Assembly: GCA_002118135.1 (NCBI GenBank)
Contig: BDIU01000013.1
Location: 372,001-436,000, forward strand
DNA length: 64,000 nucleotides
DNA from: Trebouxia sp. TZW2008
Lineage: Eukaryota > Chlorophyta > Trebouxiophyceae > Trebouxiales > Trebouxiaceae
Direction: 5' to 3'
The position numbers and the translations under genes were made by a program. Position 1 is the first letter of the stretch. Each line of letters opens with the position of its first letter. Below are positions 3,747 to 57,911 of this stretch, piece by piece. The notes below the pieces were generated by a model. It was not told where the DNA came from, searched no databases, and was given only the letters and a program-made list of their open reading frames with translations.

Positions 3747-6700
3747 ATGGTTGAGGGACACGGGTGCCATCGTGTTGCGCATGCCCACAGGAAGCTACTG
3801 CTAAACAAGCGTTTCGTTGCAACGTCTCCAAACAAGCGTTTTACTGAAGGTGACGAGCACTTTGAAAGCATTCCTGCCTCATCAATGATGTTATGAGTAT
3901 CGAACAGAAGAGCTCACAGATTCCCTGCGTTGGCTCAGGTGCAGAGGCAGTGCAGAACCAGCCTTTGACAAGGATAGAGGTCCACGGAAAGAACTTGTTC
4001 TACTTCTTTGGGGACGCTGCAAATCCTCGTGTTGTCCACATACACTTTGGCATGTCTGGCGCCTTCAAGACAATGACTCTGCCTGGACCTGAAGCTACAG
4101 AGACTACCAGACTGACACTTGTCAACCAGGAGCATGGCATCATCGCGCACCTCAGCGCCATGACAGTGATTTTGGGTGACTTAGGTAAGCTGGCAACAAC
4201 ATTGATCAAAGCATTGTATAGCCTTGAGCAGACCAGCATGCTCTGAAGCAAGTGTGTTTAGCACGATTATGTACATCATGCTGTGCTGCATCAATATGTC
4301 CCTGGGTGCTGCCATTATTGTTGTGTATTGCATTGCAGCCAGCTGCATACCGAAGCACGATCAATGCAGGGCAACAAAGCTGAAGCATCACATTCACAGC
4401 TGCTAAGAGGCAGTTGGCGTAGAGCTCGGACGCTGAATTGTCGGGGTGACAATGTCTGTGAATGCAGTGAATGCTACAAAAGCCATTTGTGTAATTGCTG
4501 TTGTGTGCATGACAGATTACTACAAGGAGAAATCCGGCAAGCTAGGTCCAGATCCCCTGAGACAAGACGCAGACGGTGAGCGCCTGTGGGAGAAGATGCG
4601 TAAAAGCAAGAAACCAATTGGAGGCATTTTGATGGACCAGACTTGCATAGCTGGCATTGGCAACATCTACAGGGCAGAAATCCTGTTCAAGGTGAGTGGC
4701 CTTCAGCAACAGGCACAAATAAGCAAAGCAACTCTGCTGTGTGCAAAATTGTTACATCCTCAAGATGTTGGTTCAGGCGACAAGTCTAGTCATGCAGCTG
4801 GGCATGCTCAACGCATCTGTGATGCTGGGATTGCTTGACAGTAGCTCGTGCTGAGTTCTATCTGCATCTATGGCATCCAGTCTGCATGCCCTGGGTTCTG
4901 ACCACTGCTGATTGCAGTTGAGGCAGCTCATCCGGCCAGCATGTGCGCACCACGCTGTCATGCAGCAGATACTGTGCTTTGAGTTGTCATAGACTCAAGC
5001 TGCAGAGTCCTCATGGCATGGCGCTCAAGCAATGTGACCATGCCAAACATGAACGCAATCCAGGCAGAGCATCTAGCCAACATGTATGCACTACCCTGTC
5101 ATGCAGCAGATTTTGTGCTTGTAGCCGTCATATACTCAAGCTGCAGAGTCCATGTGGTGAGGGGCTCCATAGCATGGCTCTACAGCAGTGTAGCCTGACT
5201 GGCCTTGCCAAACATGAATGCGATCCAGGCAGAGCATCTAACCACCATGTATGCACTACCCTGTCATGCAGCAAATACTGTGCTTCAAGCTGTCATATAC
5301 TCAAGCTGCAGAGTCTTTGTGGCAAGGAGCTGCACGGCATGGCGCTCAAACAAAGTAGCCTGCCTGGCCATGCGAGAATCACCTAGTGAGGCAGCTAGCC
5401 ATCATGTATGCACCACCCTCTGAGTCTCTAATCCTCATCACTTGCACATGCGCTTTGTTTTGCGGCATGCTGCTGGACAGGATTCTTGACTCAGGGGTAG
5501 TGGGCACGCTAATTAGATGTGATGTGTCACAGCTGCGCTTAACTGTGCAGCAAGACAACGCACAGCTACACTTCATATGGCAGCTTTGCTTGAACGCATG
5601 TCCACCTCTGCACAGTCATCAGCGATGCTGGCCAAGCACGCACTGCCTGACGAGGTGTGAAGTGTTTGACACACTGTGACAACTGACATAGGCAGGAAGG
5701 CATCCAGGCTAGCCTGACAGGTGTTTTAGCTAGGATTTATGTTAAGCTCTGTATCTTCCACCTGTTGTGCATCTGAGGTTGGATTTCACACCCAATCTCT
5801 AGCTAGCTAGCTGGTGTACAGCTGGTGCCATACAAAATTTCAGGACAAGTCTACACTTTTCACTATCAAACACAGAGCAGCCAAGTTGTGTTGTAGACTT
5901 TCCTCCCCAGGTTGCACGCTGTCCTATTGTTCTTAAACGTGTTGATTTAAGGCAGGGTGCTTACAGACGTAGTCTTGAAATGTCATTATACTGTTAGGAT
6001 ACCCAGAATTAATAGTAAGCAGTCAATAAGCAAAATGTCATCAATACGACTGCTAATTTCAGCATCGTGATCATCAATGTTATAGTCAGTTGGCATTGAT
6101 GCTAGTGTCTTTTGGTGTTGTTGCTGTAGGCAGGGGTGCACCCAGAGCAGCCGGCATGGAGTGTGAGCCGTGAAGGGTTTGAAGCCCTATGGCGCCACAG
6201 CGTGCTGCTGCTGCAGCGCGGCTTCAAGACTGGCAGCATCCTGACTGTTGATGAAGACGAGGCAAAGAAGCTGGGCAAACCCTGGACCAGAAGGTGAGCC
6301 AAACGCAAATTCATGCTTTTTGTACTGTAGACATTCTTTTCACTTGCAGAGCGGCAGCACCCTCACTATGGTTGAAGATGAGGCAAAGAAGCTGGGCAAG
6401 CCATGGACCAGAATTTCATTTCATGTTTTGATTTATGTTTGCACTTTTAGTGTCTGTACCTGGTAGCAGACCATGACCCATCAGAAATTTGCTGTCTGTG
6501 TAGCACTGCTCATGACTGACAGGAGCAGCACAGATGACAGCACAGAACAGACCAGAATGATGTCAGCTGCAAACAGCCTCAGATGCACCGTGCGGTACAA
6601 ACTGAGGCACAGGGCCACTCGCCGCTTTCATGTCAGGACATACATTTACAGAGATTTCTTTGACAGGCCAGGTGACACATTCGGGGATTGACTTGCAAGA

Positions 6701-15300: not shown

Positions 15301-18300
15301 ATTGGCTCTTGTTCAGGTAACTTTATAACTGTTATGTCCATGCTTCTTTCCAAGGCAATCAACTGCTTCTGTTTGCACCCTGCACCTGGCAGGGTCACGA
15401 AATCTCGTTGTTAAGTATGTCTATGCCAATGGGGATGCCCATGATTGATTGTTGATGCTTCATGCACTGCCCAGCAAGTCTGTGGAGACCAGAACCTGTG
15501 CTTCATGCTCAAGTTTGCTGGACAGTCTCAACACTACTGCGTCTAATTTGTCATCAGCAGCATCAGCAGCAACAACTGCGTTGCTGCGTTATGGCATGCA
15601 TGCTGTGTTCATAACCAAAAAACGTTTTTCGTTAATGTTCGTTGTTACTTGTTTACCACCCAGTAGTGGTTGTGTGCTTTCTCAAGTATGGATAACAGCA
15701 TGCAGCTAAATTGCAGGGTGTATGCTAGTCTTGATGATGTGTCAGCCATGATGTGTCAATCTTTGAAGGCGCCCTGACTACTTTGCCGCGCACATGCTGG
15801 TCAGACCATGCTTTCATCGCTCATGCATCTCTGTGCTATTTACAAATGCAATCTCATGTTCCACTGATCTTCAATTTCCCCTGTTGTTTCCTTGAGTTGT
15901 GCCGGAGGTTTTGTTGGTCGATTGTTGTTGTGAGTTCTTGACGTGATGCTGATCCTCTGCATGTTTCATTTGCTGCACGCTTGAGTTATGGGTGTGTTGA
16001 CTTTGCCCAGACAGAGGGATTGCGCTTCATCTTCCCAATTACAATCATTCTGACGGCAGGCCAAATCCCTTCTACTGTTGGTTACATGGCCTGATTGTTG
16101 ACTGCAGGGTGTGTGGGAAGCCTTCAACATGGTTGGCTCTGCGCAGACACAGGGAGGCCCACTCATCTTTCTGATTACAAGCATTTTGAGTGCAGTTGTT
16201 TTCTTTCCGTTGCTACATCGCTTGATCTTGAGTGCAGGGTGCATGGAAAGCCTGTAAGATGGTTGACTCTGTCCAGGGAGAGGGAGTTCTCCTTATCTTC
16301 CTGATCACAAACATTGTTATGGCGGGCCAAATCCCTTCTACTGTTGGTTACATGGCCTGATTGTTGAGTGCAGGGTGTGTGGGAAGCCTTCAGGATGGTT
16401 GACTCTGCCCAGACAGAGGGGGTTCCCTTCATCTTCCTGATCACAATCATTCTGACGGCGGGGTGTGCCACTCTTCGGTGGCTGGCAGATAGTGTGGAAG
16501 CCAGTGGGCTGGGTGATGGCGTGACCCTTCTCATCTGCCTCAACATCGTCAGCGGTAAGCTGGGTCTGTATCATCGTTACTCCACACATGCTTGCTGGCG
16601 CAGCACTTAATTCTTCTTGTCGCTCTCAAGATTGTCAGCGATAAGTCGGGAGGTCTTGCACCCTCATCACTTACATGCTTGCTCACAAAGTGCAATGCCC
16701 CAATTCTTGTTCTCAACAATGTTGAGTCAACATTGAGTGGCAGATAGTAGAAGTGAGTGGGATGACAGCATTACAACTGGCCCAAACCTGCATCGTGTCA
16801 TCATGACCCTTCAAGATCAACATGCATGCAATAGAATCAGCGTCATGCCATGTTGCATTTGCACAAATAGACTGGCCTTCCAGACAAACAAGCGAATTTG
16901 GCACTGGATGTCATATAGCTCTCTTTACAGCGTTGAGATATTTACTGGGCAGGAGCTGAACCAGTGGTGTGTGCATGCAAGGTATGCAACCATTGTGAAC
17001 AGAATGGCTTGGACCCTGACCTCAACTGGCAGCGTCTTGACACTGATCTGACAATAATTGCAGTTCCTGGTGGCTTTTTCAGCTCCAAATAATTAAGATG
17101 TGCACAGACTTAGCAAAATCCGTTTTTGCTTCTCTGACCTGACAGGAATTGAACCACTCACCTGTGCATGCAGGCTATGCCACCATTGTGAACAGAATGG
17201 CTGCGACTCTGACTGCGGCTGGGGTGCCCCAGACGCAACTTGGCCTGCTTACTGTGGCTTATGTAGGCCTGGTGGCCCTGGCAGTAATCATCAGCTCCAT
17301 CACCCTGAAACTGCCGTTGGTTTACTACAAGCAAAGGAGGTCAAAGGTGAGCATTGACTCCTCTGACATGCAAAACTAACACATGACAGCAATTTGTCAC
17401 ATAGTCTAGTACAGGTAATTATGCAATTGGTCTGCTCAGAGCAAAGATGGTCAAAGGGTATGCTTATGCGCCTTCCCCTGTATAGCACCTGCTCAGCAAC
17501 CGCCTATGCCTGATGTACATAGACACCAGGTTAGACGTCAAAGTTGAAGTGGGAGGCCTTGGGTCTGGGTCAAGCCCAGAAATGGACGAGCGCTGACTTG
17601 AGCCAAGCTTTTGTCACTGCAGGCACCGCAGGAGTCCCTAAAAGAAAAGAAAAGCAGCATCAGAGGCCCGCAACACTCCACAGTTGACTGTGAACGCCTA
17701 TTTGCCCATAAGCCTCAGCCCAAACGGCATGAGCGCAGTCTTGTAGGCCACTTGCCTGAAGGTATTATCTTTTGAGAGTGGCATTGTTACTGCAGGCACC
17801 ACAGGAGTCCCTAGACAAAAGGAAACCGGCCTCAGAGGCCCTCGGCACTCCACAACTGACCGTCAACAGCCCCTTGCAGTATTGAGATCTAGCGAAAGCA
17901 TCTCGCATTTGTGTCAAGTCCTGAGGGTGATGTTAACATTGCAGGCACCACAGGAGTCTCTTGACAAAAGGAGAGCAGCCTCAGAGGCGCTCAACACTCC
18001 ACAGTCGACCGTCAACAACGCCTATCTGCCCATAAGCCTCAGCCCAAACGGCATGAGCGCAGTCTTGTACGCCAGCTTCCTATATCAGCTACCAACACTT
18101 GTGGGTCTGGTGTGGGAGAAAACAGGCCAGATGCTGGCCAGAGAGCTGATGTTGGGAAAGTTTTCCAACTTGATATATGGAGCGACGGTGTTTGTCTGTG
18201 GACTTGTGCAACTTGGGCAGGACACGCCTAAGTCTATGGCAAAGTACCTCGCACATGTAAGTCACAAAGCAGAGCATAGCAACTTGCTTGCTGGGCCTGA

Positions 18301-20161
18301 CATGTAGTTCAGTGGATTGCTTATGGCATTTTTGCTCTTTTGTGTTGCTTGTATCTCTGTGGACTTGTGCAGCTGGGGCACGACACCTCCGAGTCCATGG
18401 CAAAGTACCTCGCACATGCAAGTCTTCAAACTCTGCCTGTTAAAGTGCTTGCTGAGCCTGTGAAAAGGCTTGCGGAGCCTGTGAAAAGGCATGCACTCCA
18501 GTAAAGGAGTTGAGTGCTGCACAAACACCTGAGTCTGCAGTGCAGCAGTACGTATATGTGGTTGTGAATTCTTCCCTGTTTTGTTTGTGCAGCAGGAGTG
18601 CATTACACTCAAAGGAAGGCAAGCTTGTGCTCTCTTTCAAGCACTGATGCGTTCATGCTGTGCAAAGTGACAGCCTGCATACTTTGCGTGCAGGCTGTCA
18701 CAATGAGCATGTACATGGGACAGGTAGCTTCCACTGTCTACAGATTGATGAGATTAAGGCTTCTTCGAGCAGCTTCTGCAAAGGCAGTGAAGAGCTTTTT
18801 GAGTTCAGGGCTCCAATGTTTCTGAAGATCTAGAGCCTGATCATTTAACTCCTAAGGCTGTACTGATTAGCTTACGTAGTCCATCAGTCTGTTGTGCTGC
18901 TGCTGATTGTGCGTGGTCCCTAATTCATGGCTAACAGTGCCTATTCAGGCGCTTTTGTACTTCATGAGTCAGACTCAGTGTGTGCATGACTGATACAGAT
19001 AGAAGCTGGTATTGAAGTTTTCAGCCCTGTATCATCCACTGAGAACTTTCTGAGGCGCACAATGAACATAATAGTTAGAACTTGCTGTTTGCAACTCAGA
19101 TATGTGCATGACTGATGCAGATAGAAGCAGGTATTGAAGGTTTCAGCCATGGACCATCCATTGAGAACTTCCTGAGGCGCACAATGAACATGATGTTTGG
19201 AACTTGCTGTTTGCAACTCAAATGTGTGCATGACTGATGCAGATAGAAGCAGGTATTGAAGGTCTCAGCCCTGGACCATCCACTGAGAATTTCCTGAGGC
19301 GTACAATGAACATCATGCGCTTTTGGGGAGCGCTGCTGGTGGCAATTCTAGCAAGCGCTGCACATTCCTTTGATCACCAGTGCATGCGGATTCTGGGGAC
19401 AAATGTGAGCTCTGTGAGTCTGCTGTTGGTGGTGGGTCTTGTCACATCTGTTATCAGACAGGTCAGTCTCACAACTGCACATGCTCTTGAGTACAGTTGA
19501 TCACATGTCATCAAAATGCGCATGATTTTTTTCATCAGTGCATGCGTATTCTGGGGACAAATGTGAGCTCTGTGACTCTGCTGTTGGTGGTGGGTCTTGT
19601 CACATCTGTTATCAGACAGGTCAGTCACCCAACCAAGTGCAGTTTGCATCGTGCATACTTTGCAGACCTAGCTGCCTGCCACACAATTTCTGTATTGCAA
19701 CAGGGTCATGCGTTTGGAGTTGCCCCACCACTTGCATGGTAGGCCTCACAGACAAAGTGCTGCAGAATTCATTGTGAACTAGTGTATTTCTTCATCTTGG
19801 GTTTGCTAGCTGTTTGTGCATCATTGCGAGTCAGCAGCCATCTGCAAAATTCACTGCCTTCTGAGAAGTATGGGCAGTGCAGATTTAGCATTTCTTGCAA
19901 ACTCTTGCCTCCTTGGCCGCCATTCTCCTTTCCTAATTCTAGCTGCCTGAAGTTCTGTAATATTGGTACTGCAAGCAATCCAAATTGCCGTTGCATGCAC
20001 AGAAGCATGGCTGCAGGGCCGTCAGTACGTCAGCATTGATACCAAGTTGCTTTGACTGGCTGCAGGTACAGTCGCTGCTACAGGTCCCTGCCTTGGAGAG
20101 AGCCTTGAAGCGGGAACGCGATGTTCTTCAGCGCATCTCCATTGGGGCAGCAGGTGCTTAG
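12368..20161 (+). CDS. SecY-family preprotein translocase, plastid SCY2-like
   Basis: Exons: 12368-13109, 14210-14391, 15257-15316, 16374-16554, 17174-17346, 17945-18256, 19243-19461, 20066-20161. All phases fit, giving 654 residues. SecY is the channel of the Sec translocase; plastid SCY2 is thought to serve the inner envelope. The first about 200 residues are Ala/Ser/Gln/Arg-rich and hydroxylated, like a transit region. Then come membrane segments with SecY hallmarks: NLGIGPVINASIIVGAIM, LTAGCATLRWLADSV followed by GLGDGVTLLICLNIV, PISLSPNGMSAVLYASFL, PSTENFLRRTMNIMRFWG, and SVSLLLVVGLV. The assignment to SCY2 rather than SCY1 rests on the divergent sequence and the FDHQCMRI-type segment and is less certain. 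Five of the seven introns hold decayed copies of the neighbouring exon. Its start is in the CpG-rich divergent spacer. Confidence 0.85.
13522..14145 (+). repeat. Ladder of decayed copies of SecY exon 2
   Basis: The intact exon is 14210-14391. Upstream lie a fragment (13522-13584), a near-full copy (13633-13755, frame lost at the end), a second long copy (13806-13930, open but without donor), and two short remnants (13980-14028 and 14101-14145). The best copies follow their own CAG acceptors and retain GGMED, KDLPDSMF and NASIIVGAIM. Confidence 0.92.
15211..15232 (+). repeat. (TGTA)n microsatellite
   Basis: About five TGTA units lie in SecY intron 2, shortly before exon 3. Confidence 0.8.
15990..16330 (+). 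repeat. Three decayed copies of SecY exon 4
   Basis: Copies at 15990-16060, 16108-16200 and 16238-16330 precede the intact exon at 16374-16554. Each carries variants of GGTGTGTGGGAAGCCTTC, GTTGACTCTGCCCAG and ATCTTCCTGATCACAA. Parts of the intron before the acceptor (GGCCAAATCCCTTCTACTG...) are duplicated with them. Confidence 0.92.
16982..17036 (+). repeat. Decayed copy of SecY exon 5
   Basis: TATGCAACCATTGTGAACAG and the bases after it match the start of exon 5 (17174). The acceptor has changed from GCATGCAG to GCATGCAAG. The preceding intron sequence is also similar. Confidence 0.88.
17623..17883 (+). repeat. Two decayed upstream copies of SecY exon 6
   Basis: 17623-17755 and 17796-17883 both start after ctgcag with GCACC(A/G)CAGGAGTCCCT. 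The first extends through AAACGGCATGAGCGCAGTCT and then reaches a TAG. Both have frame-breaking changes. The intact exon is 17945-18256. Confidence 0.92.
18351..18425 (+). repeat. Downstream copy of the end of SecY exon 6
   Basis: It matches the last about 70 bases of exon 6 (CTGTGGACTTGTGCA..., then GCAAAGTACCTCGCACATG). The donor GTAAGT has become GCAAGT. Confidence 0.88.
18999..19197 (+). repeat. Two decayed upstream copies of SecY exon 7
   Basis: 18999-19075 and 19121-19197 each begin ATAGAAGC(T/A)GGTATTGAAG and carry GAGGCGCACAATGAACAT. Both stop being exon-like about 75 bases in. The TGTGCATGACTGAT(A/G)CAG acceptor context is repeated with them. The intact exon is 19243-19461. Confidence 0.92.
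19539..19619 (+). repeat. Downstream copy of SecY exon 7 end with usable splice sites
   Basis: The copy is 81 bases (27 codons, no stop) and nearly identical to the last 81 bases of exon 7. It has an upstream TTTTTTTCATCAG acceptor and the same CAG|GTCAGT donor. It could be a cassette exon that repeats a membrane segment, or simply an intronic remnant. Confidence 0.85.
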
Positions 20162-37690: not shown

Positions 37691-40600
37691 ATGTCAATGC
37701 TGAGAGTGCCTATTGGGATGCAGCGCTTTCTGCGCCACTGCAGTTTCGCGAAACTGCCGACCGCTGCATCTAGCTTGTCTCGGCGGCTTCATACAAACGT
37801 ACAAGCACTGGCCGCCACCTCCGATGCGCTCATCAGCACGAACGGTGACTCCCTTCAGGTGAGGCAGCTCATGGCGCCTTCACATGTAATCCAACCACAC
37901 CTGTACTGCATATTGTGCTTGCAGAAGACTGAGCATGCAAGCAGCGAGGTCATTGAAGCGCCCCCTGTCAAGAAGCCAGTCGTGTCGACTGGTCGGCAGA
38001 AGATCAAAGAGCAGAAGAAACGCGAGCTGCAGGCTGCCGCTAATGGTAACACCCTTCCTCACTTTTTGTACTTTGTGTCAAGTCAATATACTGGCCTAAC
38101 ACCTAAGCTGAAAGACATTGTCATACTTGAAAGCATTGATGTTGTGTGCTGCCCACATGAGCTCGCCAAAATGCTTCTTGCACCTCGCAATGGCATCTCA
38201 GTCACAAATGCCATCCCACCCAGAATACCTCATGCACATGTGCATATAGGAACAACACTGCGGTCGACCTTGCATAGTGAAATCCACGCAGCTGCTAAGG
38301 CACTCCATCAATGAAACCAGTCACCATGTCTCGTCATCAAATTACAGATATCAGGTGTCATCTGCGCAATCTGCATGTAGGCCTTGGAACTATGGTCGTT
38401 GCAGGCCCTGTGATTATGGTTCATAACGCTCTACTCAGCGTACTGACAGTGCTTACAGGGATGAGCCTAGGCATGGACCCTGTTACATTTGAGAAGCCTA
38501 GCACTGAGGCAATTGGGTGTCTGCCGGCCCTGCCAGTATGGCGCCTAAGGCTCACACCAGTGATTTCATTGTCCACTGTTGCATTTCTGAAGCCTCAAAA
38601 TTGGGTGAGCTGCAGGCCCTGTGATTATGGTGCCTAAGGCCCTACCCAGCGTGCTGAAACTTCACATGAGGTTTTCCCTTGGCACAAACCCTGTCGCAGT
38701 TTGAAAGCCTCAGACTGAAAAGATTGGGTGATTTGCAGGCCCTGTGATTATGGTGCCTAGGACCCTACCCAGCGTGTTGATCGTCCACGCGGCAAGTACC
38801 CTAGGCATGGGCCTTGTTGCACTCTGAACTCCTTGAATTGACCACATTGGGTATTTACAGGCCCTGTGATTATGGTGCCTAAGGCCCTACCCAGCGTGCT
38901 GATAGTTCACACGGGAGGTACCCTAGGCATGGATCCCCTTGCCTCATATGAGCCTGATGTGGATGGGCGAGAGCGCTTGAAGGGTGGCGGCAGCTTTAAA
39001 GGCACTCTTGGCCCTGGTATGCCCTTGCAACATCACAAGTTGCTGTCAGTCCAACAGCAGTCCATGCGCCTACTGGCAAGATGCATCGCAAGTCATATTG
39101 CAGCAGTACGCCACAAGTGACCTTCTTCATGCAAAGGGCTGCAGTGGGCAAGTTGTTGGCATTCACTCCTTGTCAGATCAGAGCTAGAGCATGCTACCCA
39201 GCAACCAGTATGAGCACAAGGTCTGTCAGCATGTGCTGCTTTCTGCACTGACCATGCAAGTCAATAATCAGATGTGCAGAACCTGTGCTGACTCTGCCAT
39301 ACATCATGCACGTCAGTGGTCATCACAACCATTGAAGTGCGCTTAGTTGGGCCTTTTGGATATGTGCATCAACCCTAATCTGCATGTGGACATCAGTGTG
39401 GCCAATCCAATCTGGATATGCAGGTGACATGTTGATTATCTGCTGAATGTGGTACCAGAGCTGCACAAATTTGCCAATCTGACCCTCCAAAGTAGCCTTC
39501 AACAAGGACAGCTCCAGGGTTGATCCTCCAGAGTGGACCGTCTTAGCACGGTCGCTGCATAACATCAGGATACATCATAAAGTCTTTCTTTTGATGCAAG
39601 CAGGATTCCACTGCTGCAAGTTAACTGCGAGTGTGTTCATCAATCCTTGTGCGTGTAGGAGACATGCTGAACAACCTGCTGAACGTGGTGCCAGAGCTCA
39701 ATGAGTTTGCCAACCTGACTCAAAAAGTGGCCTTCAACAGGGACAGCTCCATGGTCGATTTCCCTGAGTGGTCAGCCTTAGCACAGCTGCTGCACCACAT
39801 CAGGAGGCAACATAACGCTTTCCTCTTTATGCATAGAAGCTTTGTTCTGGTGAATGATCTAGCAAATCTCGTGAAAGTGATCTGCACATGCAGGTGACAT
39901 GTTGAACAACTTGCTGAATGTGGTGCCAGAGCTGAATGAGTTTGCCAACCTGACCCTGAAGGTGGCCTTCAACAAGGACAGCTCCAGGGTTGGTCCTCCA
40001 GAGTGGGCAGCCTTAGCGCGCCTGCTGCATAACAACAGGAGGCACTATGATGCCTTTTTAGTGGTGCATGGCACTGATACCATGGCATATACTGCTAGCG
40101 CCCTGTCACTTATGCTGCTGGGATTCAAGAAACCCATTGTCATGACAGGTACGCTCCTCTCACACATAGATGCAATCTTGCTGGTGGAATTCAGGTCTAT
40201 ACACGAGCCTCTGGATCAGCATCCATCTTGTCACATGTCGCATGTAATGGCACTTTTTGCAGACTCCAAGATATCTTGATGCAGTGTACTCCTGTGTCTG
40301 AGTTTGCCTGAAAGTTGCTAGCATGGAGCTTTGGATCAAGCTCTATGCTGCCTATGGTTTGTGTTGCCTGGTTCTAGTGATCAAGAGCGCCTTTGCAACA
40401 GTCAATAATGTTGTGAGACTTACTTTCAGGCATCTCTGCTAGGTGCTTTCACCTTTTGCAAGCTCTCATTTGCTGTGCCTGGAAATGACTCGCTTTAGAA
40501 CTCAGAGCGGAACAATCTGACAAGCTTCACAAAGTCATCCCTGATGCAGGGTAGGAATTCACAAGGCAACATTGTAATGCCTTGTGTGCAAGCAGTGACC

Positions 40601-43600
40601 TTGTGTACAAGCCGTGACCTTGTGTACAAGCAGTGACCTTGTGCGCAAGCAGTGACCTTGTGTGCAAGCAGTGGGCTGCAGCAAATGCCTCACAGTACCT
40701 TTGTCTCACAGATGCAACGCAAACATACATGACGCGCACAGAAATGCTGCATCAAGCAGTTGCGACAGGTGTCAAAGCCACTGCTGAGCGCATTGTGCCC
40801 ATGTCTGTGCCAGATATTTGATGCATTCTGTTATGCTGTGCAGGCTCTCAGCTGCCTCTGGCAAAACCTCGCTCTGATGCGCGGCAGAACCTGATTGACT
40901 CCATCACCTGTGCAACCTCGTATTTCAACCCACCACACGTAAGTTGTCAGATTGCTTGCCTACAACCTTGCACTGATGCTTGAAGATGCTTTCCTTGTTA
41001 TCGATTGAGGCAGCACCATACGGAATGCTGCTCTGCGGGCACAGCCCTCCATCAGCAAATCTTTCTGTTTTGATCTGTGCTTTGCTGTCTCTGCTGTTTT
41101 CCCATCCCCTTTTTGGTTCTTGCCCTCCGACTCCCTGTTTTCCTTCACCTTGCTACATGCATCACCTACTTCTTTTGGACCCACAGCTGATTTGTTAATG
41201 ACTGTGCAAGGATGCATGTAGCAGTTTTGAGAGTCACTCCTGAGCCAATCATGATTGCGGGACAGGACAATTACTACTCATGCCTAAGCACAATATATAT
41301 TACATTGGAGCAATGGTGACCATAATCATGTTGACATTCCATCTTCTTCACAATTGCTGTGCTGCATACCAATCAACTGCATGCAGTCTGGCACTGGTCA
41401 AGCCTCAACTGAACTCAAGATCAGCTTGAGGTCAGATGCCCATTGGGATATGCTTGTGCTGCGTACCGTGCATGTATGTAAGCAGCATAAAGTTTGATGT
41501 ATGGCATTGCACTTCTACAGTCTGCGCTGCAAGCTGATGTGCCTCATATGAGCTGTGCGTACAGAGCAGGTGCAGCTTCAACAGATTGCAATGTGCTTTG
41601 GTGGTCAACTAATGACATACAAGTTCACCTTTCACTGAGGCGTTTCCTTGTGTACCATGTGAAACTACTATATTGCAAGCTGCTGTCTGTCATACAAGCT
41701 GTGTGTACAGAGCAGGTGCATTCCAGGAGATGGCGATGTATTGTGCGTCATGCTATGAAACACGCTGTACAACACTACACAGTGGATGTTTGTGCGACAT
41801 GCAACACAGTATGTTTGGTAACAATCTTAGCTGCTGTGCCTCGTAGCAGCTATGCTTCATACAATCTGTGTCTGCAGAGCAGGTGCAGCTTCAGGAGGTG
41901 GCAGTCTGCTTTGGGGGTCAACTCATGAGAGGCAACCGCGCTCAAAAGGTGGATGCAAGCAACTACCAGGCCTTTGACTCGCCCACATACCATAAGCTGG
42001 CGCTGCTGGGTGTAGAAGTGGATTGGCAACAGCAGTACCTCCTGCAGGTGAGCTAGCACGATCTGCAGCAACTATGCCTTCAAACCTTTATTTCCTGCAC
42101 ATCTATGGTGATGAGGGGCAACTGCACCCAGAAGGTGAATGCTAGCAACTACCAGGCCTTCCAGTTGCCCACCTACCACAAAATGGCCTTGTTGGGTGTC
42201 GAAGTAGATTGGCAACAGCAGTACCTCCTGCAGGTGAGCTAGCAAAAACCACCAAAGGAAAAAGTCACAGCCTACACCACAAGACGTCCTAGGAGTGAGC
42301 TGGAACAGTTGCAGCAATGATCTGGGTTCAAGCATTTTCCTGCACAAGTACCCGCAGGCCACTGTAATAGGCAAAACCTTTGTAGTAGGTGACGGTTATT
42401 AGAAAAAAGCAAGCAATGGCTTGATGCTGGAAGGCACCAACCAGAGCGTCTCACCAACGTACTCCGCTCTACACTGGCTGGTTGCAATGCATATTCCTTA
42501 GTGGGAACCCTGACGTTTACGCACTGCATTATCACAAGGCCCTCTTGGCCACTTGCAGTACTCAGCAGCAGCCTTTACCATAAAAGGGCCTGCCCTGCTA
42601 TCAAAGCTCATGTCATTGTCACCATGGATGCATACTTTCATTCTTGTCGTGGCTCATCGCCCCAGGAAAAAGCTCAGAAATATGCAGCATACAAAGCCTT
42701 CCCTGCCACGACCTGACATGGCTGGACCCTGATTGATCAGTCAACCATTGTTGCTGTTCCAAAGACCCAAGGGGGGTGAGCTTGCAGACACTATCAAATT
42801 GGGAATCATGTGGCATCAATGTCTGCTTTACAAGGCAATGTATTTGGCATGTGATATGATCAAGGCTGGACTGAACATGATGCAATGCATGGGTGCAGGT
42901 TCAGGGTGGGTATAGGCCACGATTTGGATTGGATCCTGCAGTGATGAGATTGCCCATTGTACCTGGTGCCGACCCCCGGGTAATGTATGGGGACCTGGTT
43001 CAGCGAGGGGTCAAAGGCGTTGTGCTGGAAGCTTTTGGTAAGCACCACACAAGCTCATACTTGCAGTCAAGGAGAGCAATTGCTACTTCCTACACATGTG
43101 CAGCAATACACATATTGAAGCGTGGAGCGTATCGTAATTCCTGGGGGCACTTGTTGCTGCTCAGCATCATTTGAGGGGAGATACGCCCTGATGCTGCCCC
43201 ATCCGTACACATGCAAGTGTGTCATTGCATGTATATGCAGTACATGTACATTCTGTAATGCAACAGCTAAAATGTCCTTTTTGTATGAACAGAAGTTTAG
43301 ATCCTGTCACACGCAGCCAACATTGACAAATCAGGCAGATGGTATCTGTCAACATGCCTTTTGGATCAGACTCTTCCCATACTGATTTGTTCAGGTGTGG
43401 GCAACATGCCTGATCTGCCACAGCAGGGCTGGCTGCCTTGGCTTAGGCAGCAACGCAAGAAGGGCCTTCAGGTACCATGCATTGTGCATTTTGCATTCAT
43501 GGAAAGCTTGCTTGTGCAACCTTTGAAATGCATGTGCTGCATGTCTGTTGTTCACAAAGAGGACTGCTGCCAACTGTGATGTCTGCTTGAAAGATTTTGT

Positions 43601-43959
43601 CCCAAAATTCATGCGCAAAAGCAGAGCTGTGCTGATGTCCATCCTAGCCATTGCATTGAAATGCCCTGATTTTGACTGTTGCTCGTTCGAATTGCAGTCC
43701 TGACTACCTGTTGTCTGTACAACAATACATTTGACTGTCCAAACGAAACCAAGAGTGGCCATGAGTGCAGGTGTATCTATCATCTCAATGCACAGTGGGC
43801 ACGCTCAACCCTGAGCTCTATAGAAGTGGCCAAGTTGCGTTGAGTATGGGTGTGGAGGCAGGTCCACGAATGACACCAGAATGTGCAGTAGTCAAAATGA
43901 TGCAGTGCCTACGATATCCTGCACTCCCATTGACCGTTCCACTGTGTGGTGAGATGTAG
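37691..43959 (+). CDS. Type I L-asparaginase (AnsA/ASPG-like), probably organelle-targeted
   Basis: Exons: 37691-37858, 37925-38045, 38861-39016, 39894-40148, 40844-40938, 41880-42047, 42899-43037, 43395-43471, 43771-43959, giving 455 residues. It hydrolyses asparagine to aspartate and ammonia. Seen: VLIVHTGGTLGMDP (first active-site motif, Thr in TGGT), DAFLVVHGTDTMAYTASALS (second motif), KKPIVMTGSQLPLAKPRSDA, GGQLMRGNRAQKV, NAFDSP-like QAFDSPTYHKL, and VVLEAFGVGNMP. The N-terminus (MSMLRVPIGMQRFLRHCSFA) is Arg-rich and hydroxylated, like a mitochondrial or plastid presequence. A basic linker, GRQKIKEQKKRELQ, follows. Exon 6 may start at 41880 or 41883 (both keep frame). Introns before exons 3, 4 and 6 contain decayed exon copies. 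The C-terminus is shorter than in forms with ankyrin repeats. Confidence 0.92.
38405..38830 (+). repeat. Decayed copies of asparaginase exon 3
   Basis: Copies at 38405-38520, 38616-38720 and 38739-38830, and a scrap near 38525, all begin after GCAG with GCCCTGTGATTATGGT and continue toward CTACCCAGCGT and CCTAGGCATGG. All lose the frame or the TGGT motif. The intact exon is 38861-39016. Confidence 0.93.
39424..39830 (+). repeat. Two decayed copies of asparaginase exon 4
   Basis: 39424-39570 has frame-breaking changes. 39659-39830 follows a GTAG acceptor, stays open (GDMLNNLLNVVPELNEFANL), and reaches HNAFLFMHRS where the intact exon has YDAFLVVHGT. It therefore lacks the catalytic motif and a donor. 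The intact exon is 39894-40148. Confidence 0.93.
40581..40673 (+). repeat. 19-bp tandem repeat, CTTGTGTGCAAGCAGTGAC
   Basis: Five units with one or two changes each, inside asparaginase intron 4. Confidence 0.92.
41565..41750 (+). repeat. Two decayed upstream copies of asparaginase exon 6
   Basis: 41565-41630 (AGCAGGTGCAGCTTCAACAG then GTGCTTTGGTGGTCAACT) and 41711-41750 (AGCAGGTGCATTCCAGGAGA) follow ACAG acceptors. The preceding CATA(T/C)(G/A)AGCTGTG(C/T)GT context is repeated with them. Confidence 0.88.
42107..42233 (+). repeat. Downstream copy of the second half of asparaginase exon 6
   Basis: It reads (V)MRGNCTQKVNASNYQAF and then LLGVEVDWQQQYLLQ, followed by the same CAG|GTGAGCTAGC donor as the intact exon. 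It has no acceptor, so it should be intronic. Confidence 0.93.
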
Positions 43960-49509: not shown

Positions 49510-49788
49510 TCACGCAACGACCCTCGCTCGAGGAGTCAGCAGATTTTGGAGAGGAGACCGCAAGTGTGTCGGGTAGATCGCCCCTGTCGCTGTAAGGAGC
49601 GATCTAAGTGCCAGCGCATACTGAATGGCGCTGCAATTTAGCTGCAGACCGTAACTACGGTCAGCTTCGTGCTTGAGCCTCTTGGCTTCCAGCTTCCCTG
49701 GGCTTCTAAATGGGTGTGGCTCATTTGGTGCAGCAATCATCTGAGCGACGCTTCCATTTGGAACCAGCACGTCTTGGCTGAAAATCAC
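49510..49788 (-). CDS. Possible exon of an uncharacterised minus-strand gene
   Basis: A frame ending at 49510 reads QDVLVPNGSVAQMIAAPNEP and LEAKRLKHEADRSYGLQL. It is preceded by an AAAGCCAG acceptor near 49788. Codon use looks more coding-like than the overlapping plus frame. It may be the last exon of a gene starting near 51628, but no complete chain could be built. Confidence 0.3.
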   Translation of the reverse strand: MIFSQDVLVPNGSVAQMIAAPNEPHPFRSPGKLEAKRLKHEADRSYGLQLNCSAIQYALALRSLLTATGAIYPTHLRSPLQNLLTPRARVVA

Positions 49789-51817: not shown

Positions 51818-54800
51818 ATGACCAGGCGTGGCGCGCCGCCAAGTCGTCAGCGGCAGGCGTTTGAATCTCTCCTTGATCCGGCATATGCGTCTCAGCCCAA
51901 TACTTTCGATACGCAACATGAGCAGGGCAAGCGAGGCCGCCAGCGTAATCGTTCAGATCGCCAAATTTTTGACAAGCGAAGATCAGACAATACACCTGGG
52001 TTCACACTTCGTGAGGCAGTGCCGACTTCACAACAGCCTGCCTCAGGTCTTGAGCAGCTCAGCAGCATGTTCGGCTCCATGATCGACAGCAGTATCATCA
52101 GCGAGGTTCTGAAGAGCTGTGGTAATTCAGTACAAGCTGCGGCAGAGGCACTGCTTGAGATGTCTGAGCGTCAGCAGCCTCAAAAGCCACAGCAAGATCA
52201 GCTAGCAAACACAGCAGGTGAGTGACATGCTAGCCTCCCTTGGTCAGCGCACACCGTCTTTGGCATGTGAGACAATCGCTCATTCGATTAGTCAAGGATA
52301 CCATGAGTCCTGTCCATGCCTGAGCATACGCACACTGCCTGCAGAGTTGACATCAGAGACCAGCTATTGGAGCTGGCTTCCTGAGGAATGCAAAGGGCTG
52401 GTGCTGAAGCACTTGGACTCCAAGGACTTAGCCAAGGCAGCGCGTACTTGCAAAGAGTTTGCAGAACACATCAGGGGAGTCCGAGCTGGCCTTGCCTGTC
52501 TCAACATACCCCCTGGTGAGCTTGATTGTGCAATTGCTCCTTGCGCTGCAACTGCATGCCAGTCTGACAATCAATGCAGCTTGCAATGCCTGAGCTGCAA
52601 TGCTCAGCTGTGCTCAGTCCTCAGCAGCAGCTGACACCAGGTGGCTGGCCTGGTTGGCATAATTTACGCTTCATAGCAGAGCTTAGTCTTGTGAACCCAG
52701 CTTGACAAGCAGCAGCATAATGGCATGCTGCAACACACATAACATGAACCTACATTTGCATAAGCAATCCTCAGAAACAGAAAACCCTACTGGCGTGTGT
52801 AACGTTTTTTGTATGCCTATCACCAGCGGCGATGAGATATTGCCGACGAGATGTCGCCGGTGAGATATTGCCATTGAGAGATGTTGCAATGAAACAGCGA
52901 ATGGGTAAAAGAGGAGTAGCATAGCGGTGGATTAGACAGTCACCACATGGCAGCAGATCAGTGCCATCTGCTTTTGCAGGCATGAGCAGGGCTGCTGTTC
53001 AAGGAATGATAGCAGCATACACAGGAGCGCACACAGTCAGCTTGGCTCGCTGTGCCGGGCAGCTGCGTCACACCGTGGATTTTGCAGACATGTTTGCAGC
53101 TGTGCAGAGGGGCAGCAATGCACGTAAACAAGGCCCACCCATAGAACGGCTGAGTCTGAAGGGGTGCATCGCATTGAGGACTGATGACATTGCCATGCTT
53201 TGCGAGTACTTTGACTCCCTCAGGTGTGTGACTGGTCTTCAAGCAAGCTTCTTGGGCAACATCACAGTAGCCTTGCTCATTGCATCTGTCACTGAAACAG
53301 CACTTTGACGCTATTGCTTGCTCAAGTCTATGAGCGTAACTGTTGCAAACACCCAAGGGCACTTTCTAACCACCGTGTTTCTGATAAGGTCCAAACTGCT
53401 GCTGTCCTGCTTTGCCATGCCAGTGCAAGCAGCAGCAAGTGCCACTTTTACTTGGCTCTACCGCCCATGCAGTCCATGCTTCAGGTGCTGCGCTTGCCTT
53501 GCAGGTCCAGCTGTGTTGGTTTAAAGCAGCTTCTGGCGGACTTGTGCAGAACTAGCTGCTTGCTCCTGTATGTATCTATGCGCTGGCTTTCACAGCCTGC
53601 CGGGCAAGTGCTTGTAATGTATGAATAAGTGAATGACTTGCCATTTCGACTGTGCAAGACGCAGTGCGTGCTTGTGTCCAGGGGATTGAACTTGAAAGGG
53701 TGTGAAGACATTGATGACGCTGCTGTGATCCTGCTGTCCAAATACTGTGCAATGCGATCAACGCTGCCGGATGACTTGAACTCCCTGCATCTGACAGCAG
53801 CAGACCCTGGACCAGCAGCAGCTCCAGAAGCAACAGCACCCTCAGATTGGCAAACTGTCAGCATGCAGCGCGCTTACCTGAGTAACATCATGGTAGGGCT
53901 GCGGCAGTCTGAGGCGCCTAGCAACCCACACAAGCACCTGCAACCAGGGCTCAAAGCTGAGGGCACTGCAGATCATGCGCACTCTCAACAGCATCACAGG
54001 CAGTCAGCAACAGGTAAGAACTGCAAGATCTGTAAGACATGTTGTCTAAGCATATGCGTTGTCAGTTGAAACACAATCAAACAATGTTTGTTCTCCAAAA
54101 CCTGTGCAGTGTGGTGTTCAAAATTTCGATGTAGTTCTTGGCCAGCAAAGTCAAACAGCTTCCAAGCTGAGGAGGGAGTGGCTCTGAATCAACCTGGCTA
54201 CTTTGCTGTTGTTGCTGCAGCTGGGCCGCTGCAAAGTGTGGCAGACATTGCACAAACATACTTGATGCTCTACATCTATGTGCCACTCCTTCACACAGCC
54301 CATTTCTGTTGCATGGGCAAAACGCATGGCCTGCCTTCACACAAAGACCCCAGCTGAAGGTCCGATGGCGTCAATGCAGTAGCTGTACGCAGTAGCTGTA
54401 CACACTAGCTGTATGCTGCATCAGGAAGCAGTGTACAGGTTTGTGCATGCATTACCTGTGTTGGCTGCACTGCAGGCGGTACGTCTGGGCTGAAGTCACT
54501 ATGCCTGGACCGCTATGCAAAGGTGACAGAGAAGGGGGTGGCAGCTCTGCTGAAGGGCTCAGCAACAGCACATTCCCTGACTTGCCTGGGTGTTTCACGC
54601 TGCCTGGGACTTGAATCGTAGACCCCAGCTGATGTCCTGATGTGGTCAATGCAACATCTGTGCTAGCTGCACTGCAGGTGGCACATCTGGTCTAGAGTCC
54701 TTGTGTCTGGACGGCTGTGCAAAGGTGACAGAGAAGGGCATGGCAGCTCTGCTGAAGGGCTCTGCAGCAGCACACTCCTTGACCGGCCTGGACGTTTCAC

Positions 54801-57800
54801 GCTGCGCAGGGCTCTCTGGTAACCCCTTGGATCTGCCTCCCAAGGTAATGATTCAAGTTTCAGATAGCCGTTGCTGATAGCTGTCTCAAAGAGGAGCTTC
54901 AACAAGCTGTGTGCATTCAACTTCTCAGCCGCTGGGACTGATTTGCATCATGCATGATGCAAGCTTGATTGGCAGGCGAAGTCTCTTGGTGCCAGCAGCT
55001 GCCATGCCATCATTGCTGTTGAGCTTCAGCTGCCAGCAGTAGCGTCCCATAGAGTCAGTGTCTGTAGTTGTCTGCTGTAAGCTTCAGTAATGCCCAGTCT
55101 GTCCTGAGCATTGTGCTGCATGCAGGCATTCTTGTCAGGATTGCCATGAAGTCACTTCTGTTGAGCTTCCAACTGCCAGCATGGCACCATGGGAGTCAGT
55201 CTCATATGAGTGGTGTGTCCTGAAGCCAATTGCTGCATGCAGGCGCCCTTGAGACAGCTCATTGCCAACAGCTGCCATGGCATCACTTCTGTTGAGCTTC
55301 AGCTGCCAGCAACAGCGACCTTGGAATCAGTCTCAGTGGCCGGCTGCCGCAAACTGAAGCGGGTCTACATATCTGCCGCCAATCTCAACAGTTTGGCTGT
55401 AGACGACTGTCCACAGCTCCATAGTCTGGAGCTGTTGTGTCCAAAGTTGGCGACTCTGAGTGCCTCCAAGTGTAACCATCAGGCCATGCCTGTGCTGACG
55501 TGCCCAAATTTACAGCAACTCAATCTGTTTGGCAACCGACAGCTGCAGTCTGAAGGTGAGGCCTGTATAGCAACAATAACATCACAAAATAGAAGAACAC
55601 AACAAGCAATGCAGTTTGGTTGTTGATGATTGTCTGCCGCTCAACAGTCTGGAGCTAAATTGTCCAAACTTGGTGACCTTGAGCGCCTCCAAATGTGCCC
55701 ATCAGGCCATGCCTGTGCTGTCGTGCCCAAAGCTGCAACAGCTCAACCTGTTTGGCAACCAGCAGCTGCAATCTGAAGGTGAGGCAGTTCATGCCTCACA
55801 AAAAGAAAGAGAACTGTAATCAGAATTTATATGCTATTGTGCCCAAAAATACAGCAGTTCAACTTGTTTGGCGGCTGGCAGCTGTAGCCTGAAAGTCAGG
55901 CCCAGCTACAGTAGTATCTCTTGGACAGAACATTGACTATCAGCGGGTCCCAACATGGATCAGGCAGACTGCTGCCTGCTCAGTATTTGCGGCATGAGCT
56001 TTGCATATGTACTGCATAAGACAACTTCATGCCAGCTGCATACATACTAATGTGCTAACAGAGTCTCCAGGCAAGGGTGCATGCTGCAAATGCTGCGGTC
56101 AAGCTTCTTGCACATCAACCTGACAAGGCTGATGCTTTTGATCTGCTGCAGAACTTTGTGCATGCAGTGCACTGCTTCTGTATGCATCTAGCAGGGTCAC
56201 AAATTCTCACAAACAAGCAGGCATCATGTGTTACATTGAATGCATGCTTCCTCGTAGGAGTTTGTGACTCTGCTAGGTGCATACAGAAGCATTGCACTGC
56301 CTACAAACAGTTGTGCAGCAGATTGTGTGCACCACAAACCCAGCCAGCCTGGTGAGACAAGACTTGTGCCACACCCAGCGCCTATGCTAGCATGTGATCT
56401 GATATCACTAGCATTACAACTTGTTATCCATTACTGATTTTGTTGCGGTAGTCTGAGTCTCATCATCAAATTGTCATCATAGGATGGTGACGATGACAGG
56501 ACTGATGCTCCTGCTGTGCTGCAGACATGGAGGAGGTTTTGGACCAGCTGCCAAACCTGGTCAAGCTGAATGTCAATGGCTGCATAGCTCTGACCAGGCT
56601 GGTGCTGAGGAGCTGCACCAAGCTGTCATGGCTTGATTGCTCAGGCTGCTCACGTGTGCACCATGTCATCAGCTCTAGCCCCGCTATGACGCACATGGAT
56701 GCTGTTGCCTGCGCCAATTTAGTGGTGCGTACTGCAATTTCTCTGGTCCCCACCTGCTGGGTGGTAGGCTCCTTTCTGTCCTGACACCCTTGTTGCATGC
56801 CTGCGGGTGTGAGTCTGCTTCAGTGTTGTGATCCAAGCTGCAATGGCTTGACTGCTCACGCTTGCACACGTCATCAGCCCTAGCCCTGCTCTGACGCACA
56901 TGGACGCTGTTGCCTGAGCAAATCTAGCGGTGTGTACTGTAATTTGTCTTTTTAAACACCTGCTGTGTGTCAGGCTGCTTTCTGGTTCAACAAACGCCAA
57001 AGCTGTTGTCTGCAAATGTCTCCCTGTGCGTAGCATGCATTGTCCTTTTGCATGCCTGAACAAGGAGGCTGGGCCTGGTTCAAGCACATCACACTAGCTG
57101 GTTCATGCATAAACCACCTTCACCTTGCTTTAGGCCCCGCTCAGTTGCAACAGCAAATTTGGCTTTGCTATGCAATGCATGCCTATGGCAGCACACATGG
57201 CAGCATGTGGCAACTGGGGTTTGCAATTTGTCAGTATGCTTCACTTTGCGCATCAGTCAAGCTATATCTTCATCCATGCAGACCATTGTTCCTGGCTGCC
57301 TGTTGGATTGGTCATGCCTTCTGTGACAATCATTCAGTGTTTAAGGCTCAACTTATTGCTGCATTGTCTGCAGTTGTGCTATCAGCTGCAATGCCATCAG
57401 GTTTTATTACATTCACCGCTGCAGGAGGTGTCACTGCAGAGTTCTAGAGTGACCAAGATGACTCTGGCCAACTGCGCTGTGTTGCGGCAGCTCTCTTTCC
57501 CTGAGCTTGATCATGCAGTGGCTCAGCGGCTTGCTGGGCCCGCTGCCAAGTCAAGCTCCAGTGCAGGCTCAAAGGTCAGCATTGCTCTTGGCGTTGAAGC
57601 GCTTGATTATCTTGTGTGCAAGTGACAATCATGGGAGAAGTATGACATGATGGTATTAACAAGACAGGCTCTAAAGCAAGCACTGTACTTGACATGGAAG
57701 CGCTGAGGTGACTTGTGTGCAAGCTTGAGTACTGTCTGGGAGGACTTTGGCATTGTGTTGACTAATGCGGTTGCAGAGATTTGTAACTTTGCAAAAGCAG

Positions 57801-57911
57801 GTGCAAGCATCACAACTGTGGTATGTATTGCTGCAGGACCGTCTTGCGCGGCGGATCAACATCAGTGGCTGTGATCAGCTGCCATCTGCTGTCCAGAGCG
57901 TACTATCCTGA
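51818..57911 (+). CDS. CUE-domain F-box/LRR protein
   Basis: Exons: 51818-52217, 52345-52515, 52980-53223, 53682-54013, 54678-54844, 55243-55555, 56525-56724, 57425-57574, 57837-57911, giving 683 residues with all phases consistent. Residues 78-117 form a CUE (ubiquitin-binding) domain: LEQLSSMFGSMIDSSII, CGNSV, AAAEALLEM. Residues about 140-185 are an F-box: WSWLPEECKGLVLKHLDSKD, LAKAARTCKEF. Leucine-rich repeats follow: IERLSLKGCIALRTDDIAM, LESLCLDGCAKVTEKG, LDVSRCAGLS, LVKLNVNGCIALTRLVL, LSWLDCSGCS. F-box/LRR proteins recruit substrates to SCF ubiquitin ligases; a CUE domain would add ubiquitin binding. The first 60 residues are basic and disordered-looking. Introns before exons 5 and 6, and after 6 and 7, contain decayed exon copies. 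Confidence 0.87.
54476..54624 (+). repeat. Decayed copy of F-box gene exon 5
   Basis: After CTGCAG it reads GGTSGLKSLCLDRYAKVTEK and GVAALLKGSATAHSL, then stops at TAG (LGLES*). The intact exon is 54678-54844. The ACTGCAG acceptor and the flanking ACCCCAGCTGA(A/T)G context are also duplicated. Confidence 0.93.
54976..55230 (+). repeat. Two decayed upstream copies of F-box gene exon 6
   Basis: Segments 54976-55080 and 55126-55230 follow GCAG and carry TGTTGAGCTTC(A/C)(G/A)CTGCCAGCA and GAGTCAGT(G/C)TC from the intact exon (55243-55555), with frame-breaking changes. Confidence 0.9.
55613..55895 (+). repeat. Downstream copies of F-box gene exon 6 end
   Basis: 55613-55791 repeats the LRR-coding end (VVDDCLPLNSLELNCPNL...FGN) and ends TCTGAAG|GTGAGG, like the intact exon. 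55838-55895 is a shorter, more diverged remnant whose donor has become TCAGG. Confidence 0.92.
56823..56935 (+). repeat. Downstream copy of F-box gene exon 7 end
   Basis: CAAGCTGCAATGGCTTGACTGC, CATCAGCCCTAGCCC and GACGCACATGGACGCTGTTG match exon 7 with deletions and an in-frame stop. The GGTGCGTACTGCAATTT donor region is copied as GGTGTGTACTGTAATTT. Confidence 0.92.

What the first reader, a model, noticed from the sequence alone, without database searches (positions are those of the whole stretch)
3747..57911. Pervasive 'exon echoes': tandem duplications across exon/intron borders in most resolved genes
In the glycosylase, NDUFAF3-like, SecY, 162-residue, ribokinase, asparaginase and F-box genes, introns contain decayed partial copies of the neighbouring exon. 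The copies follow a rule. Upstream copies hold acceptor plus the exon's 5' part and lose the donor. Downstream copies hold the 3' part plus donor. One intact exon remains, usually the last of the upstream series. This is what neutral tandem duplication with one breakpoint in the intron and one in the exon would leave. About 30 such copies in 64 kb suggests a genome-wide process and a possible source of intron growth, cassette exons and new minisatellites. I know of no described genome with this density, but that is not proof of novelty.
Basis: partly seen in the sequence, partly recalled or inferred. Interest (0 to 1): 0.88.

Follow-up and report, generated by a model that had tools for sequence, protein, structure and literature searches.

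The report
Exon-edge copies littering algal introns
Introns of this lichen-alga genome hold many decayed partial copies of the neighbouring exon, the leftovers of frequent local DNA duplication, much like the 'exon stuttering' recently described on tiny bird chromosomes but apparently spread widely over this genome.

Summary
The window (a Trebouxia genome) has 54 direct and 1 inverted self-matches, 53 of the direct ones within 3 kb. Of 19 ten-kb stretches from 19 other contigs, 16 show the same; shuffles of 18 of them show none. Sixty of 217 scored exons carry intronic partial copies. Upstream copies are acceptor-only 70:1 against donor-only; downstream copies donor-only 49:2 against acceptor-only. 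That rule is geometry: random breakpoints plus selection for one intact exon. A spliced homologue shows the asparaginase echoes are not in the protein. Codon-position patterns fit neutral decay. Echo families are locus-specific, and a SecY echo recurs in a metagenomic relative.

Two corrections. Only about half of the copies behave as simple head-to-tail duplications; in the rest homology fades near the splice site. And the phenomenon is described: Hron et al. 2026, 'exon stuttering' on chicken dot chromosomes. Their screen repeated here hits 31 of 131 introns, against their 190 of 5,572 dot-chromosome introns. New here: a green alga, many contigs, ordinary GC.

The parts
38860..39018 (+). asparaginase exon (residues 95-147 of P0001), source of four upstream echoes
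   Evidence: 100% identical to P0001, which comes from a 2,621-base contig while the gene spans 37697-43956
38404..38842 (+). four upstream echoes of that exon (38404-38508, 38526-38576, 38609-38719, 38738-38842); three stop at residue 129
   Evidence: tblastn of P0001; BLASTn rows with periods 122, 245, 456
39893..40149 (+). asparaginase exon (from residue 147)
   Evidence: P0001
39440..39834 (+). two upstream echoes (39440-39596 in two pieces, 39658-39834), ending at residues 204 and 205
   Evidence: periods 235 and 470
41878..42047 (+). asparaginase exon used in P0001 (residues 264-319)
41565..41622 (+). upstream echo: acceptor plus first 58 bases
   Evidence: period 313, 81%
42111..42233 (+). 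downstream echo: last 123 bases plus donor GTGAGC
   Evidence: period 186, 84%; not in P0001
14210..14391 (+). SecY exon with upstream echoes at about 13635-13756 and 13808-13928 and a partial one at about 13520-13582
   Evidence: orthologues P0122, P0123; periods 577, 404, 753
16374..16554 (+). SecY exon with upstream echoes at 16238-16326, 16108-16189 and 15996-16060
   Evidence: periods 136, 266, 402
17174..17346 (+). SecY exon with an upstream echo at about 16983-17029
   Evidence: period 193
17945..18256 (+). SecY exon with upstream echoes near 17623-17757 and 17796-17874 and a downstream echo at 18350-18417
   Evidence: periods 322, 149, 161; relative P0125 reads through the upstream echo into the exon
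19243..19461 (+). SecY exon with upstream echoes at 18999-19064 and 19112-19186 and a downstream echo at 19518-19622
   Evidence: tblastn of P0122; this exon is below my score cut-off and is not in the 217
33185..33382 (-). ribokinase (PfkB) exon; upstream echo at 33454-33596, which the exon model wrongly called as an exon (33458-33561)
   Evidence: PfkB match E 0.0007, below the curated cut-off, in this exon; PfkB match over the cut-off at 32550-32681
34212..34338 (-). ribokinase-region exon; upstream echo at 34541-34611
   Evidence: period 238
54678..54844 (+). exon of the F-box gene; upstream echo at about 54478-54603
   Evidence: period 202, 83%; F-box domain at 52206-52631. Exon and echo are both open, and a repeat protein is not excluded
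57425..57622 (+). last predicted exon of the F-box gene; downstream echo at about 57665-57753
   Evidence: period 101, 69-73%
6217..6293 (+). predicted glycosylase exon; downstream copy at 6343-6413 covers bases 6-76 of 77, both splice sites lost
   Evidence: formamidopyrimidine-DNA glycosylase H2TH domain at 4437-4835
31467..32372 (+). imperfect direct-repeat array not touching a scored exon

Best explanation
This is gene-body 'sequence stuttering': a long-running local duplication process copies segments, mostly 100-240 bp apart, in direct orientation within genes of this Trebouxia genome. When a copied segment crosses an exon border, selection keeps one intact exon, and the other copy becomes an intronic half-exon with an acceptor and no donor, or the reverse. 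Splicing probably ignores it because its partner site is missing, and it then decays neutrally. Some echoes sit in true tandem arrays that grew by further duplication or unequal exchange; others are spaced copies whose neighbouring intron sequence is not recognisably shared. Shown here: locality, direct orientation, presence in most sampled contigs, the border rule, a neutral pattern of decay, absence of the echoes from the asparaginase protein, and separation of echoes from the same exon at different times. Inferred: that the copying is DNA break or replication repair, that splicing ignores half-exons through exon definition, and that there is no function.
For: Direct and local: 54 direct to 1 inverted in the window; 183 near direct to 7 inverted in 18 stretches, L010 left out. 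Border rule 70:1 and 49:2, matching simulated geometry. Exon-echo differences by codon position 408/2346, 372/2358, 683/2354 = .174/.158/.290: neutral echo, exon free at third positions. Echo splice sites kept as expected from drift, AG 48 of 65, GT 33 of 47. Echoes absent from P0001. One pair among 85 clusters shares sequence. Constant-period arrays, e.g. 130 x4 in L033 and 135/137/137 in L019. Published screen: 31 of 131 introns, 67 direct, 0 inverted.
Against: Spacers are homologous in only 19 of 50 and 26 of 50 pairs; in the earlier flank test 26 of 38 upstream and 13 of 28 downstream flanks were homologous, against .82 to 1.0 in simulated tandem copies. Only 9 of 40 two-copy repeats are adjacent within 5 bp. 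The gene-rich stretches L021 and L028 have no repeats. Distance of the copied part to the exon border is 1 base or less in 30 of 67 hits, against more than 90% in chicken. No junction of a young copy could be read, and splicing was checked in one gene.
Confidence: 0.66

Rival explanations
1. Only simple head-to-tail tandem duplication followed by neutral decay; intron spacers merely lost recognisable homology faster because both copies drift and suffer indels.
For: Geometry fits; upstream flanks are homologous on average (mean z 4.6); some arrays have constant periods with shared spacers.
Against: In echo-echo pairs, where both parts should be neutral and of one age, the exon part is .795 alike and the spacer .671, null .606; pairs without shared spacers have irregular periods (ICC -0.27); echo-echo differences have a third-position excess; 28 of 119 echo alignments have gaps, so indels look too few. 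BLAST selection of similar exon parts biases this comparison.
Confidence: 0.27
2. Old tandem copies whose exon-derived parts are kept alike by gene conversion from the intact exon, while spacers diverge freely.
For: Sharp contrast between exon parts and spacers; echo-echo third-position excess; asparaginase echoes at equal 235-base steps with spacers of 59 and 60 bases but weak similarity (z 2.5 and 1.5).
Against: Conversion between copies about 80% alike is expected to be rare (general knowledge); irregular spacing in most such pairs.
Confidence: 0.16
3. The copies are functional alternative or mutually exclusive exons.
For: Some echoes keep an open frame and a splice site, e.g. 42111-42233.
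Against: 11 of 162 copies reach both exon ends, some of them because the model called an echo as the exon; first- and second-position differences are as high as neutral drift predicts; echoes are not in P0001.
Confidence: 0.04
4. A mobile intron or repeat family (introner) inserted many times.
For: Many introns carry repeats.
Against: Each cluster is made of its own local sequence: 1 shared pair among 85 clusters; the asparaginase exon plus echo matches only its own locus.
Confidence: 0.01
5. Assembly artefact.
For: A gap of 162 N in L012 is flanked by identical 52-base copies, so the assembly handles near-identical repeats badly.
Against: Nearest exon-echo identities are about 73-89% between the 10th and 90th percentile, with codon-structured differences; a SecY echo appears in a metagenomic relative. 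Poor assembly would hide young copies rather than invent old ones.
Confidence: 0.02

Closest known systems
Sequence stuttering / exon stuttering on avian dot chromosomes (Hron et al. 2026, PMC12954441; abstract, outline, sections 7, 9, 16 and some passages read; section 8 not read)
   Same: Local direct repeats of tens to hundreds of bases in introns; lateral exon parts copied with the adjacent donor or acceptor site; coding exon left intact; copies imperfect
   Different: Here in a green alga, on 12 of the 18 stretches that had introns, GC 48-52% without correlation to repeat cover; 31 of 131 introns against 190 of 5,572 (rough, my gene models were not manually reviewed); exon parts median 55 against 36 bases; border distance of 1 base or less in 30 of 67 against over 90%; length variation among individuals not testable here
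Small tandem duplications from Pol alpha-primase fill-in at staggered breaks (Schimmel et al. 2021, PMC8355091; passages read)
   Same: Local direct duplication of short segments; a possible source of the copies
   Different: A mechanism shown in mammalian cells at induced breaks; no junction data here to test it
Tandem exon duplication (e.g. PMC9013439; search listing and start of abstract only)
   Same: Duplicated exon sequence beside its source
   Different: Here mostly half-exons with one splice site, not whole spliced exons
Intron gain by tandem genomic duplication (PMC4974935) and introners (PMC9860276); search listing and start of abstract or significance statement only
   Same: Duplication-based change of intron content
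   Different: No new introns were shown here; units are locus-specific, not a shared family

Membership tests
Sequence/exon stuttering (Hron et al. 2026) | Intron repetitiveness: local imperfect direct repeats of tens to hundreds of bases | tested here: met
   85 clusters in 244 kb, 79 of them with periods of 100 to under 240; 20.4% of predicted intron bases
Sequence/exon stuttering (Hron et al. 2026) | Exon fragments with the adjacent splice site repeated in the neighbouring intron (BLASTn-short screen, 42.1 bits) | tested here: met
   31 of 131 introns; 67 proximal direct, 0 proximal inverted, 1 distal, 0 shuffled
Sequence/exon stuttering (Hron et al. 2026) | Extensive intron length variation within the species | not testable with these tools
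   one assembly only; no reads or further individuals
Sequence/exon stuttering (Hron et al. 2026) | Association with GC-rich dot chromosomes (an association, not part of the authors' three main features) | tested here: not met
   24 ten-kb pieces with GC .479-.516, Spearman -0.11, p .59
Simple tandem duplication | Copies head to tail with the whole unit repeated | tested here: inconclusive
   met in constant-period arrays; spacer homologous in 19 of 50 and 26 of 50 pairs; 9 of 40 two-copy repeats adjacent within 5 bp
Tandem exon duplication / alternative exons | The copy has both splice sites and is spliced | tested here: not met
   both exon ends reached in 11 of 162 copies; echoes not in P0001, the only gene where splicing could be checked
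Introners / transposable elements | The same family sequence at many loci | tested here: not met
   1 shared pair among 85 clusters

The most novel reading that the evidence does not exclude
A gene-body-specific copying process, possibly coupled to transcription or splicing, preferentially copies exon edges up to the splice junction and deposits them about 100-200 bp away in the adjacent intron, again and again from the same exon. The loss of homology at the splice site in about half of the copies, their irregular spacing, the excess of clusters on exons and their scarcity in intergenic DNA would be its signature.
Probability: 0.17. Interest if true: 0.88.

Novelty: new variant of a known kind. 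Interest (0 to 1): 0.63.

Why it matters
The one description of exon stuttering that I found ties it to GC-rich bird dot chromosomes. Finding it at a higher rough density, at ordinary GC and on many contigs of a unicellular alga argues that high GC and microchromosomes are not required, and points to a lineage with an unusual duplication or repair spectrum that can be cultured and sequenced. The half-exons are a natural experiment on how splicing ignores acceptors without donors. They also warn gene annotators: the self-trained exon model called at least one echo as an exon (window 33458-33561).

Tried and rejected
First coding model: trained on the longest ORFs, it drifted into low-complexity repeats and was dropped. 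A second, seeded with 20 stop-free Pfam-matched exons, gave clean splice signals, AG|GTRAG-like donors and TGCAG| acceptors.

Single-burst reading: identities of local direct hits peak at 80-90% and 12 of 294 reach 95%, which looked like a past burst. But the only gap in the sequences analysed, in L012, is flanked by identical 52-base copies, so young copies may be hidden by the assembly. Trebouxia sp. TZW2008, which resembles this genome in size (69.9 Mb) and GC (49.7%), is called a shotgun assembly (PMC12712428 passages, PMC7526373 passages). I draw no conclusion on age, and identity with TZW2008 is not proven.

Selection against echo splice sites: none seen. Depletion of whole-exon copies: not distinguishable from geometry. 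Comparison with other eukaryotic DNA: not possible with the collections on hand; one viral-contig scan for relatives of the asparaginase confirmed none. Junction microhomology was not measured. Literature searches turned up one paper on exon copies in introns of this kind, the chicken paper; the library lacks most subscription journals, so absence elsewhere is not shown. In PMC11126685 and PMC12712428 I saw only passages found by search terms.
Full report
What was checked. The window is G000:C13:372001-436000 of a 68.5-Mb, 527-contig genome. A protein joined from predicted exons of the asparaginase gene is 90% identical to a Trebouxia sp. C0006 protein and 84% to one of C0005, so the organism is a Trebouxia, a lichen alga. 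Size and GC resemble Trebouxia sp. TZW2008 (69.9 Mb, 49.7%, passages of PMC7526373), but identity is not proven.

Window self-comparison gives 54 direct and 1 inverted matches, 53 of the direct ones within 3 kb. Of 19 ten-kb stretches taken from base 20,001 of 19 other contigs, 16 hold local direct repeats; one dinucleotide shuffle of each of 18 of them (L012, which holds N, was not shuffled) gave none. Without L010, a GC-poorer piece with 140 inverted hits, the counts are 183 near direct against 7 inverted. Three stretches have none: L013, where no gene was predicted, and L021 and L028, which have 11 and 6 scored exons. In the 244 kb kept (window and 18 stretches) there are 85 clusters, and 17.5% of bases lie in repeats. 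Of the 85 fundamental periods 79 lie from 100 to under 240 bp, median 156.5. The stretches were chosen at regular contig numbers, so small contigs are over-represented.

Gene models. No annotation was available, so I trained a small exon model on 20 stop-free SecY and PfkB exons matched by Pfam; it converged on strong splice signals. The asparaginase model was confirmed: the query is 100% identical to P0001, a 452-aa protein from a 2,621-base contig, while the gene covers 37697-43956. The contig is too short to hold the introns, so it must be spliced. SecY exons were supported by P0123 (Trebouxia sp. C0004) and P0122 (unnamed), about 34-74% identical exon by exon.

The border rule. Of 217 scored exons, 60 have at least one copy within 1 kb; a whole-locus criterion gave 67. 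Among 162 copies, upstream ones are acceptor-only 70, donor-only 1, both ends 5, neither 12; downstream ones donor-only 49, acceptor-only 2, both 6, neither 17. Copies in one array are not independent; counting only the nearest copy on each side gives 34:1 and 25:2. Random placement of segments with the observed periods over the observed exons predicts roughly equal acceptor-side and donor-side copies and about 10% whole-exon copies among those not inside the exon; the nearest observed are 34, 25 and 7, and some of the 7 arise because the model called an echo as the exon. The rule therefore needs nothing but selection for one intact exon. Repeat pairs inside a single scored exon are 3, all in L017.

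The echoes decay neutrally. Exon and echo differ at 17.4%, 15.8% and 29.0% of first, second and third codon positions, as expected if the echo drifts at every site and the exon mainly at third positions. Splice dinucleotides of echoes survive in 48 of 65 (AG) and 33 of 47 (GT) cases, close to the 70% that I compute from first and second positions; AG and GT elsewhere in the exon part survive in 63% and 47%. In asparaginase three of the four echoes of exon 38860-39018 stop at residue 129, and the echoes of exon 39893-40149 stop at residues 204 and 205: one breakpoint, then amplification. None is in P0001.

Not a mobile family, not an assembly product. One pair among the 85 clusters shares sequence, and the asparaginase exon plus echo region matches only its own locus. 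The metagenomic protein P0125 reads through the upstream echo of SecY exon 17945-18256 into the exon, so that echo exists outside this assembly. P0127 looks by eye like a further echo with a frame-shifted second copy; I did not test this formally.

What simple tandem duplication does not explain. A head-to-tail duplication must also repeat the intron piece next to the splice site. In 50 exon-echo and 50 echo-echo neighbouring pairs the exon-derived parts are .83 and .795 alike but the spacers only .673 and .671, against about .605 for shuffled sequence. By local alignment the spacer is homologous in 19 of 50 and 26 of 50 pairs; null 17 of 200. A global test of 40-base flanks gave 26 of 38 upstream and 13 of 28 downstream, where simulated tandem copies give .82 to 1.0. 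Arrays with shared spacers have constant periods; pairs without have spacings no more alike within an array than between arrays (ICC -0.27, permutation p 0.90, 34 periods in 14 arrays). Among 40 simple two-copy repeats 9 are adjacent within 5 bp. Echo-echo differences also show a third-position excess (.208/.217/.321; p 1.4e-9), which one duplication followed by drift would not leave: echoes left the exon, or were overwritten by it, at different times. I cannot decide between spaced copying, gene conversion and fast loss of spacers.

Distribution. Repeats cover 20.4% of predicted introns, 20.4% of predicted exons and 2.7% of predicted intergenic DNA. Clusters touch scored exons in 56 of 85 cases against 38.3 (sd 3.8, 0 of 2,000 shifts) and lie wholly in predicted intergenic DNA in 2 against 6.9 (p 0.024). 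By distance from scored exons the trend is weaker (3.6% of bases more than 2 kb away, shift expectation 10.1%, z -2.0). Exon-containing pairs stay detectable longer and some echoes were called as exons, so this is suggestive only.

Comparison with the literature, made after the above. Hron et al. 2026 (PMC12954441; abstract, outline, sections 7, 9 and 16 and passages read) describe 'sequence stuttering' on chicken dot chromosomes, including 'exon stuttering': lateral exon parts copied with the adjacent splice site into the intron. Repeating their BLASTn screen (blastn-short, length 20 or more, 42.1 bits) on 131 introns between scored exons gives 31 introns with 67 proximal direct hits, 0 proximal inverted, 1 distal and 0 in shuffled introns. 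Theirs gives 190 of 5,572 dot-chromosome introns after manual review. My exons were not reviewed by hand, so the sevenfold difference is rough. They find the copied part within one base of the border in over 90% of cases; here it is 30 of 67 (50 of 67 within 10 bases). They suspect high GC; here GC is 48-52% and uncorrelated with repeat cover. A search for the term found no other paper in the library.

Mechanism. The most likely origin is local duplication during break or replication repair; Pol alpha-primase fill-in at staggered breaks makes small tandem duplications in mammalian cells (PMC8355091, passages). That is inference. Young copies, which would show junctions, may be missing from this assembly: the one gap in the sequences analysed is flanked by identical 52-base copies.

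Verdict. Observation confirmed; interpretation right in outline but incomplete for about half of the copies; novelty reduced by the chicken report but extended to a distant eukaryote, on most sampled contigs and without high GC.

Noticed in passing
L012:5671-5936: A scaffold gap of 162 N is flanked on both sides by the same 52 bases, as if a near-identical tandem copy could not be assembled.
   Followed up: partly
L021, L028: Gene-rich stretches with no local repeats at all, while L022 has 61% of its bases in them; the reason for this unevenness is unknown.
   Followed up: no
L010:1-10000: GC .415 piece with 73 near direct and 140 inverted self-hits, unlike the other stretches.
   Followed up: no
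window 31665-31770: Perfect 18-base minisatellite, 5.9 copies, inside the 31467-32372 repeat array.
   Followed up: no
window 24468-24535: TGCTGG hexamer repeat, 11.3 copies.
   Followed up: no
window 62774-63805 (-): Gene with a GmrSD restriction-endonuclease N-terminal (PF03235) domain, 59 bits, in an intron-bearing algal gene model.
   Followed up: no
window 12968-20158: This SecY is a divergent copy: its best Trebouxia relatives are about 50% identical, and the genome holds further SecY matches on C244 and C273.
   Followed up: partly
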